Made by a program: the position numbers and the translations under genes. From contig JAUSAZ010000171.1 in assembly GCA_030652255.1 (NCBI GenBank), positions 43,150 through 107,149 on the forward strand: a DNA stretch of 64,000 nucleotides, read 5' to 3'. The stretch is from Myxococcales bacterium. Its GTDB lineage: Bacteria > Myxococcota_A > Polyangia > Polyangiales > Ga0077539. The notes beneath the pieces are model-generated. The model worked only from the letters and a program-made list of their open reading frames with translations. It searched no databases and was not told the origin of the DNA. Of this stretch, positions 50,767 through 52,388 are shown in pieces; position 1 is the first letter of the stretch; the number at the start of each line of letters is the position of its first letter.

Positions 50767-51783
50767 ATGGGGAGACGGGGCGCATCGGACTCGGCCATGA
50801 GGGCCATCGGACTCTTCCTGGAGCGATCGGTGTGGGTGCAGGCCGAGCTGGCGCGCGCGCTGGGACTGACCACCGACGCGACCCGCGCGGTGCTGCGCTC
50901 GCTCTGCGACGCCCAGGTGCCGCTGCGGTCCGAGCGGCGGGGGCCGCAGGTGCAGTGGCGCCTCGACGAGGCCTGGCTCGCGGGCAGCGTGCGCATCCGC
51001 AAGGCGATGCTGCCGGAGTTCTACGCGCTGATCCTGAGCGCCCCGCGGGCCCCGGGGCGGGAGCGCTTCGTGCGCGAGCTGCTCGCCGGGGGAGGCTGGA
51101 GCGAGAAGGCCGTGGACGCCATCGTGCCCGCGACGATGCCCGACGAGGTCGACCGGCACGCGCGCGCGCTGCTGGAGTCGGTGCGCCGGCGGCAGTGCCT
51201 CGCGATCAAGTACCACAGCCAGAGCAGCGGCGACCTGAGCTGGCGCGACGTCTCGCCGCAGCTGGTCGAGCACGCGGGCACGGCGCGGGTCATCGCGTGG
51301 TGCCACCGCAGCGCGGCGCTCAAGGTGTTTCGCATCGACCGCATCCAGGACAGCGCGGCGCGCCCGGCGCTGATGTTCCGAGAGACGCCGCGGGCGGAGG
51401 TGGAGGACTTCCTGCGCGGCGGGGTGAACGGCTACCGGGGCGCGGTGCGGGTGCCGTTCTGGTTCGAGGTGCGGCGCGCCGAGCGCTGGATCGAGGACAA
51501 CCTCCCGAGCATGGTGACCTTCACCAAGAGCGTGCGCGGCGACCGCGTGCGGGTGGAGGGGGAGGTCGCCGGGCACCTCGTGCTGGCGCGCTTCGTGGCG
51601 AGCCTCGGCGGCCACGTGCTGGCGATGGACCCTGGCCTCGCGGCGGCGGTGCGCGACGTGGCGGAGGGCGCCCTCGCGGCGGCCAACGCGGCGCTGAACG
51701 CTGGCGCAGTGCCGGCTATCAGCGACGATGCACCGCCACGGATAGCCCTCATCGACGTCCGTAGAGTCGCCCGGAAGCGATGA
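50767..51783 (+). CDS. WYL-domain transcriptional regulator-like protein with N-terminal winged HTH
   Basis: N-term HTH (VQAELARALGLTTDATRAVLRSL); WYL-like core QCLAIKYHSQSSGDLSWRDVSPQLVEHAGTARVIAWCHRSAALKVFRIDRI. Confidence 0.72.
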   Translation: MGRRGASDSAMRAIGLFLERSVWVQAELARALGLTTDATRAVLRSLCDAQVPLRSERRGPQVQWRLDEAWLAGSVRIRKAMLPEFYALILSAPRAPGRERFVRELLAGGGWSEKAVDAIVPATMPDEVDRHARALLESVRRRQCLAIKYHSQSSGDLSWRDVSPQLVEHAGTARVIAWCHRSAALKVFRIDRIQDSAARPALMFRETPRAEVEDFLRGGVNGYRGAVRVPFWFEVRRAERWIEDNLPSMVTFTKSVRGDRVRVEGEVAGHLVLARFVASLGGHVLAMDPGLAAAVRDVAEGALAAANAALNAGAVPAISDDAPPRIALIDVRRVARKR

Positions 51784-52388
51784 ATGAAGCCCCCCCGGAC
51801 CCATGGATCGAGACCCCCGCCCGGGTCGACCTGGCCTTCCCCCTGACGGGCGACCCCGTGCCCGCCGAGCACGGCTACGCCCTCTTCTCGGCGCTGTGCC
51901 GCACGCTGGGCGACCTCCACGGCGCGGCGTGGCTCGCGGTGCACCCCATCGACGCCGCGCCCGAGGGCGGCGGCGCGCTGCGGCTGCGGGTCGACCCGGC
52001 GCAGGCGGCGCGGGTGCTGCCCCTCGCCGGGGCGACGCTGCGTCTCGACGGCGCCCGGATGGCCGTCGGCGAGGCCCGGGTCATGCCCATCGTGCCGGCG
52101 CCCACGCTGGCCGCGCGGATGGTGGTGCTGCGCAACGGGGTCGCGGCGCGGGCGGACTTCGAGGCGGCGCTCGCCCAGCGGCTGGCGGCGCTCGGGGTGC
52201 GCGCGGTGGCGGAGGTGCCGACGTCGGCGCTCGACGACGGGCGGCGCGTGCTGCGCATCCGTCAGCAGGCGATCGCGGGGTACCCGGTGGTCCTGCGGGG
52301 GCTGTCGGAGCAGGACTCCCGACGGGTGCAGTCGCTCGGCGTGGGCGGCCGCCAGCGCTTCGGCTGCGGGGTGTTCGCCCCGCGGTGA
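51780..52388 (+). CDS. cas6: CRISPR-associated endoribonuclease Cas6/Cmx6-like (MYXAN type)
   Basis: DLAFPLTGDPVPAEHGYALFSALCRTLGDLHG...LAVHPID, RLRVDPAQAARVLPLAGATLRLDG, RVLRIRQQAIAGYPVVLRGLSEQDSRRVQSLGVGGRQRFGCGVFAP: RAMP fold with C-terminal Gly-rich loop as in MYXAN Cas6. ATG overlaps the WYL stop (ATGA, 51780-51783). Confidence 0.8.
   Translation: MNEAPPDPWIETPARVDLAFPLTGDPVPAEHGYALFSALCRTLGDLHGAAWLAVHPIDAAPEGGGALRLRVDPAQAARVLPLAGATLRLDGARMAVGEARVMPIVPAPTLAARMVVLRNGVAARADFEAALAQRLAALGVRAVAEVPTSALDDGRRVLRIRQQAIAGYPVVLRGLSEQDSRRVQSLGVGGRQRFGCGVFAPR

What the first reader, a model, noticed from the sequence alone, without database searches (positions are those of the whole stretch)
50767..52388. 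Orphan WYL regulator - Cas6 two-gene cassette without other cas genes or a CRISPR array
The 202-aa ORF at 51780 reads as a MYXAN-type Cas6/Cmx6 (RAMP fold, terminal GVGGRQRFGCGVF loop). It is joined by an ATGA overlap to a WYL-domain wHTH protein. It is flanked by an RND efflux operon and a lipoprotein gene; no Cas3/5/7/8, Cas1/2 or repeat-spacer array is visible in the 64 kb. WYL proteins are known CRISPR/defence regulators, so a stand-alone WYL-Cas6 pair could be a trans-acting crRNA-processing module, a remnant, or a repurposed RNase under ligand control.
Basis: partly seen in the sequence, partly recalled or inferred. Interest (0 to 1): 0.82.

Follow-up and report, generated by a model that had tools for sequence, protein, structure and literature searches.

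The report
Stand-alone WYL–Cas6 RNase gene cassette
A regulator gene and a CRISPR-RNA-cutting enzyme gene have broken away from their CRISPR system, moved as one unit to new chromosomal sites, and been kept intact by selection in a myxobacterium-like genus whose best genomes show none of the other CRISPR genes searched for, so the enzyme probably has another job.

Summary
51780-52388 is a bona fide type I-MYXAN Cas6 (TIGR02807, 140.9 bits against a cut-off of 98.9; AlphaFold model matches CAST I-B Cas6). It is ATGA-coupled to a WYL regulator. No array is in the window. The 9.37-Mb genome shows no Cas1, Cas3, Cas7/DevR or type III RAMP.

The pair occurs in four of five genomes of the genus, always outside a cas operon. 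In sister genera of the family a diverged WYL gene sits directly upstream of cas6, beside other type I-MYXAN cas genes. The orphan Cas6s form one clade (100/98) nested among operon-borne Cas6s, so the pair is a detached operon head.

It is not simply decaying. omega is 0.21 (Cas6) and 0.15 (WYL), the canonical invariant residues including His47 are kept, and the ATGA overlap, absent in the sister loci, is kept in all four. A spaced motif lies about 70-80 nt upstream of WYL. The pair occupies two different sites, with a reciprocal pair-less site for each, so it has moved as a unit of about 1.76 kb.

Best reading: an autoregulated, exapted Cas6 RNase acting on non-CRISPR RNA. Main rival: a portable Cas6 for Cas6-less type III systems. 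The RNA substrate is unknown.

The parts
50636..52398 (+). Whole inserted cassette, about 1763 bp: upstream region, WYL gene, cas6
   Evidence: The G146 counterpart site (L157) has the same flanks with 10 bp (GCGCTGGGCC) in place of this stretch; alignable sequence ends at 50635 and resumes at 52399
50684..50715 (+). Conserved spaced motif TTGCC-N15-RTGCNAACSTSC, likely operator and/or core promoter of the cassette
   Evidence: Present 72-83 nt upstream of the WYL start in all four genomes despite two different neighbourhoods; 16 of 32 columns identical against a maximum of 15 in 150 shuffles; at up to 1 mismatch only these sites plus one other hit in five genomes
50767..51783 (+). wHTH-WYL regulator gene (338 aa)
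   Evidence: PF13280 48 bits; 78-98% identical in the four genus members; omega 0.15
51780..51783 (+). ATGA stop/start overlap coupling WYL and cas6
   Evidence: Same overlap in G148, G146 and G149; no such overlap in the sister-genus loci, where 140-196 bp lie between the WYL stop and the first alignable Cas6 residue
51780..52388 (+). cas6 (type I-MYXAN Cas6/Cmx6 family, 202 aa)
   Evidence: TIGR02807 140.9 bits; AF2 pLDDT 88.7, TM 0.84 to 8fcu_B; omega 0.21
51918..51920 (+). Codon of His47, invariant in all 38 aligned Cas6s; candidate catalytic residue
   Evidence: Alignment A1; His aligned there in the CAST Cas6 8fcj_B, whereas His31 is Asn in that protein
52338..52370 (+). C-terminal glycine-rich loop GVGGRQRFGCG, RAMP signature
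   Evidence: G187, G189, G190, G195 and C196 invariant, R191, R193 and G197 nearly so

Best explanation
This is a stand-alone, self-regulated Cas6 ribonuclease cassette. Shown by sequence: it descends from the WYL-cas6 head of a type I-MYXAN CRISPR operon; in this genus the pair stands without the other cas genes, is a tightly coupled (ATGA) two-gene unit, has moved as a unit of about 1.76 kb between at least two chromosomal sites, and both proteins are under purifying selection. Inferred: WYL binds the spaced motif 70-80 nt upstream and represses or gates its own operon; a ligand of the WYL domain (nucleotide or nucleic-acid fragment, as proposed for BrxR-type regulators) relieves this; Cas6 then cuts or binds a hairpin in host or invader RNA that is not a CRISPR transcript. 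The substrate and the ligand are unknown.
For: Family and fold. Solitary in the genome. Pair in four of five genus members in two different neighbourhoods without cas neighbours. Origin: WYL upstream of cas6 in sister genera (G139, G141, G145) beside MYXAN cas genes and orphan clade 100/98 nested in operon-borne Cas6s. Selection: omega 0.21 Cas6 and 0.15 WYL, omega=1 rejected by about 57 and 92 lnL units; within each site group Cas6 omega 0.34 (2dlnL 9.3) and 0.18 (55.7); 98% of cells in canonically invariant columns retained. Mobility: reciprocal pair-less sites. Motif. Genes homologous to this WYL precede other CRISPR subtypes in the order. WYL regulators of defence loci bind inverted repeats upstream of their own gene (PMC9122601).
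Against: No RNA substrate, ligand or expression data. All genomes are draft assemblies (81-94% complete for the four carriers), so missing cas genes or arrays cannot be fully excluded. Cas6 evolves faster than WYL and than nearly all flanking genes, which would also fit partly relaxed constraint. G148 carries type III-B modules without a visible own cas6, which would fit a trans-processing role. The motif could be an ordinary promoter.
Confidence: 0.5

Rival explanations
1. Portable trans-acting crRNA processor: the cassette supplies Cas6 to CRISPR modules that lack their own, such as type III-B systems that come and go in these genomes.
For: G148 holds two Cmr-type gene clusters, one with cas1 and cas2, and no cas6 was recognised on those contigs. 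Myxobacterial III-B clusters often lack cas6 (PMC11237760). The cassette is mobile. Low-GC accessory islands (69% against 76%) are easily lost in metagenome binning.
Against: G000, G146 and G149 (93-94% complete) have no cas1, no RAMP and no DevR. No MYXAN-like repeat at 0-1 mismatch was listed in any genus genome (list truncated but sorted by mismatch). The array seen beside a G148 cas1 is of a different, type I-G-like kind. The G148 type III contigs may be binning contaminants.
Confidence: 0.28
2. Slowly decaying remnant: the promoter-proximal two genes of a lost operon, not yet pseudogenised.
For: The pair corresponds to the operon head, next to the likely promoter. A comparable WYL gene followed by a short Cas3-HD-like ORF occurs in G205 (by eye). 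Cas6 has a higher omega than nearly all flanking genes.
Against: omega clearly below 1 in both site groups; no stop or frameshift in four genomes at about 60% identity; catalytic residues intact; moved as a unit with reciprocal pair-less sites; ATGA coupling kept in all four and absent in sister loci.
Confidence: 0.14
3. Assembly illusion: the rest of the operon is present but missing from the drafts.
For: All genus genomes are multi-contig drafts.
Against: In G000, G148, G146 and G149 the pair sits inside contigs with ordinary genes on both sides and no cas genes at its ends; sites without the pair are contiguous too.
Confidence: 0.04

Closest known systems
Type I-MYXAN (MxI-B) CRISPR-Cas Cas6/Cmx6, TIGR02807
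   Same: Same protein family over full length, same invariant residues and fold; relatives carry it with cas3, cas8, cas7, cas5, cas4/1, cas2 and an array
   Different: Here none of the other cas genes searched for and no array found; paired only with WYL by an ATGA overlap; relocated
Cas6 of type I-B CRISPR-associated transposons (8fcj/8fcu)
   Same: Closest solved structure, TM 0.84
   Different: No Cas5/7/8, Tns or TniQ gene beside the pair
WYL regulators of defence loci (BrxR, CapW, Sll7009)
   Same: wHTH-WYL architecture beside a defence-derived gene; upstream conserved motif compatible with autoregulation
   Different: Governs a single RNase gene, not a full defence system; no NCBIfam equivalog match
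Isolated or orphan cas loci (PMC5294841) and CreTA (PMC12737573)
   Same: Cas genes separated from arrays; Cas6 doing work outside immunity
   Different: The published survey defines isolated loci as three or more cas genes; CreTA needs Cascade, which was not found here

Membership tests
Type I-MYXAN Cas6/Cmx6 (protein family) | TIGR02807 score above the curated cut-off | tested here: met
   140.9 against 98.85 bits
Type I-MYXAN Cas6/Cmx6 (protein family) | Conserved histidine and C-terminal Gly-rich loop, RAMP fold | tested here: met
   H31, H47, G187-G195 invariant; Foldseek to Cas6 structures E 7e-17
Type I-MYXAN Cas6/Cmx6 (protein family) | Cleaves the MYXAN repeat at the stem base | not testable with these tools
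   Needs an RNA cleavage assay
Type I-MYXAN CRISPR-Cas system | Cas3, Cas8, Cas7/DevR, Cas5, Cas4/1, Cas2 in the locus or genome | tested here: not met
   cas1, cas3, DevR and RAMP searches negative in the own genome; Cas8, Cas5 and Cas2 not searched separately
Type I-MYXAN CRISPR-Cas system | CRISPR array with ...GATGCCnnnnGGCGTTGAGCAC repeat | tested here: not met
   No match at 0-1 mismatch and no cluster in G000; no convincing array in 18% of the genome sampled
WYL-domain transcription regulators | WYL domain above cut-off | tested here: met
   PF13280 48 bits against 21.8
WYL-domain transcription regulators | N-terminal wHTH and operator binding upstream of own gene | tested here: inconclusive
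   HTH read from sequence only; conserved upstream motif, binding not tested
Type III Cas6 supplier in trans | Co-occurs with a Cas6-less type III system | tested here: inconclusive
   G148 only, possibly contaminant contigs; absent in G000, G146, G149

The most novel reading that the evidence does not exclude
A Cas6 lineage exapted into a free-standing, WYL-gated, relocatable regulatory or defensive RNase that cuts non-CRISPR RNA; to my knowledge the first case of a regulator-cas6 pair maintained by selection over a genus after losing the rest of CRISPR.
Probability: 0.45. Interest if true: 0.82.

Novelty: new variant of a known kind. Interest (0 to 1): 0.62.

Why it matters
Cas6 enzymes are thought to exist to mature crRNAs. 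A small clade in which Cas6 and a ligand-type regulator are kept intact and moved together without crRNA effectors makes the question 'what else can a Cas6 do?' directly testable, offers a naturally isolated sequence-specific RNase, and would add a case of CRISPR parts being recruited to other functions. If the trans-processor reading is right instead, it explains how Cas6-less type III systems in myxobacteria obtain crRNAs.

Tried and rejected
(1) Displaced copy of a complete operon elsewhere: rejected, only one cas6 and none of the searched cas genes in the genome. (2) A Cas3 in G000: the best hit (C62) is BrxHI beside BrxD. (3) Degenerate MYXAN repeat beside the pair as a Cas6 target: only 4-5 mismatch matches, no better than background; genome-wide core matches of 2-3 mismatches are unclustered. 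(4) The upstream motif as an RNA hairpin target: no consistent compensatory pairing by eye, and the 15-nt spacer is not conserved; a DNA site is likelier. (5) tRNA integration hotspot at the G146-type site: ARAGORN finds no tRNA in L149 or L041. (6) The first tree used wrongly oriented loci and was discarded; one search is the corrected one. (7) NG86 dN/dS (0.45-0.60 for Cas6) is inflated by extreme GC3, so codon ML models were used. (8) Literature search for stand-alone cas6 found nothing relevant.

Full report
Observation. 51780-52388 (+) scores 155.7 bits with Pfam Cas6 (cut-off 26.7) and 140.9 bits with TIGR02807 cas6_cmx6 (cut-off 98.85), and hits several PADLOC Cas6 models. 50767-51783 (+) carries a WYL domain (48 bits, cut-off 21.8) with only a sub-threshold WCX match (17.8 against 23.9) and no NCBIfam match. 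The last four bases of the first gene, ATGA, start the second. The pair sits between an RND efflux operon (45011-50590, -) and a lipoprotein-like gene (52399-54042, -). An AlphaFold2 model of the Cas6 (pLDDT 88.7, pTM 0.84) matches the Cas6 of a type I-B CRISPR-associated transposon at TM 0.84 and other Cas6 structures more weakly, in line with the sequence profile (E 1.9e-49 to 8fcj_B).

Is the rest of CRISPR elsewhere? The assembly containing the window has 9.37 Mb in 234 contigs at 94% completeness. It holds exactly one Cas6 of this family, no Cas1, no DevR/Cas7, no RAMP protein of type III and no Cas3 over the model's cut-off. The best Cas3 hit is a BREX BrxHI helicase next to BrxD. Cas8, Cas5 and Cas2 were not searched separately. 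The repeat core of the related MYXAN arrays, GATGCCnnnnGGCGTTGAGCAC, has no match with 0 or 1 mismatch and no clustered matches. A repeat-spacer detector that recovered the arrays in all six control loci found only one 3-copy, 23-bp hit in 1.66 Mb of this genome, about 18% of it, which I judge a false positive by eye. The remaining 82% was only searched with the MYXAN repeat core, so an orphan array of another kind is not excluded.

Conservation. In a scan of 322 genomes of the class, 29 have a Cas6 relative. In the genus, four of five genomes carry it (the fifth is 64% complete), and in each of the four the same WYL gene lies directly upstream: G148 (WYL 98%, Cas6 87%), G146 (80%, 58%) and G149 (77%, 58%). 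None has cas neighbours. In a database of 5.8 billion proteins only five WYL proteins were found, four at 67-98% identity and one at 35%. The closest Cas6s (55-90%) are nine proteins, after which identity drops to about 50%.

Origin. In other genera of the same family (G139, G141, G145) a diverged WYL gene (27-34%) precedes cas6 beside further MYXAN-type genes and, in G139, an array. Representative genes from G139 and from a complete operon in the order (G305) score as MYXAN Cas5, Cas8a1/Cmx1, Cas7/DevR, Cas3 and Cas1. A maximum-likelihood tree of 25 Cas6s places the four orphan Cas6s as one clade (100/98), next to the Cas6s of G141 and G145 (85/79), inside the operon-borne Cas6s. WYL genes of the same wider family head other CRISPR subtypes, or stand elsewhere, across the order. 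The pair is therefore a detached head of a MYXAN operon.

Not mere decay. Codon models give omega 0.21 for Cas6 and 0.15 for WYL over the four genomes; omega = 1 is worse by about 57 and 92 log-likelihood units. This holds within each pair of genomes sharing a site: Cas6 0.34 (2dlnL 9.3) for G000-G148 and 0.18 (55.7) for G146-G149. Of the cells in columns invariant among operon-borne Cas6s, 98% are retained in the orphan clade, including His31, His47 and the C-terminal glycine loop. Cas6 does evolve faster than WYL and than nearly all neighbouring genes. The ATGA overlap is present in all four orphan loci and absent in the three sister loci, where 140-196 bp separate the WYL stop from the first alignable Cas6 residue.

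Mobility. G000 and G148 share one site, G146 and G149 another. The G146 counterpart of the window site has the efflux and lipoprotein-like genes directly adjacent: alignment to the window breaks after 50635 and resumes at 52399, with 10 bp in place of a 1763-bp stretch that holds just the pair and its upstream region. Conversely, the G000 counterpart of the G146/G149 site (contig 154) lacks the pair and has an unrelated 243-aa gene there. The pair has thus been relocated, or gained and lost, as a unit. No transposase or target duplication was noticed at the edges, but this was not examined systematically.

Upstream motif. TTGCC-N15-RTGCNAACSTSC lies 72-83 nt before the WYL start in all four genomes although the sites differ. 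The three-way identity of the block (16 of 32 columns) exceeds 150 of 150 dinucleotide shuffles (maximum 15, mean 12.9). With up to one mismatch it occurs in five genomes only at these four places plus one other spot in G000. Because the pattern was derived from these sites, uniqueness is partly built in. It may be an operator for WYL, a promoter, or both.

Mechanism. Most likely, WYL autoregulates the two-gene operon through this motif and yields to a ligand, as proposed for BrxR-type regulators (PMC9122601), and the Cas6 acts on an RNA that is not a CRISPR transcript. The main rival is a portable Cas6 for Cas6-less type III systems: G148 has two such clusters, at 69% GC against 76% for its host-like contig, with no recognised cas6 on those contigs, and published work notes that myxobacterial III-B clusters often lack cas6 (PMC11237760). 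Against it, three genomes at 93-94% completeness have no type III component, no array beside the G148 clusters was found, and no MYXAN repeat was listed in the genus. A passive remnant is disfavoured by the selection, coupling and mobility results.

Verdict. The Cas6 is a member of a known family; the WYL protein belongs to a known regulator class; the free-standing, coupled, relocated and selected two-gene cassette is a new arrangement. Literature searches for stand-alone Cas6 found no described equivalent; subscription papers were not searchable.

Noticed in passing
window 11796-32589 (-): Three giant genes: a single-chain multidomain acetyl-CoA carboxylase (biotin carboxylase, biotinyl and carboxyltransferase domains, 1825 aa) beside a PfaA-type polyunsaturated fatty acid synthase (TIGR02813 1658 bits) and a 2928-aa KS/FabA/acyltransferase protein. 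A fused ACC encoded with a PUFA synthase looks unusual.
   Followed up: partly
window 43039-44214 (-): Indoleamine 2,3-dioxygenase family protein (PF01231, 86.5 bits), uncommon in bacteria.
   Followed up: no
G000 contig 62, L033 32-3492: BREX-type BrxD plus BrxHI pair in the same genome.
   Followed up: partly
L133 (G148:C525) and L134 (G148:C730): Two type III-B (Cmr) clusters without a recognised cas6; in C525 cas1 and cas2 flank a 972-aa ORF that reads like a reverse transcriptase. GC 69% against 76% for the host-like contig.
   Followed up: partly
L121 (G205:C123): WYL relative followed by a 264-aa ORF resembling a truncated Cas3 HD region (by eye): possibly another WYL-plus-one-cas-gene remnant.
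   Followed up: no
L046 (G145:C90) 1039-1689: A second cas6 in G145 with no cas genes downstream and no recognisable WYL upstream.
   Followed up: partly
L117 and L123: WYL relatives (31-35% identity) followed in both genomes by similar genes, including a roughly 785-aa protein beginning with a LILADGN/LILTDGN-type motif: a possible non-CRISPR partner system for this WYL family.
   Followed up: no
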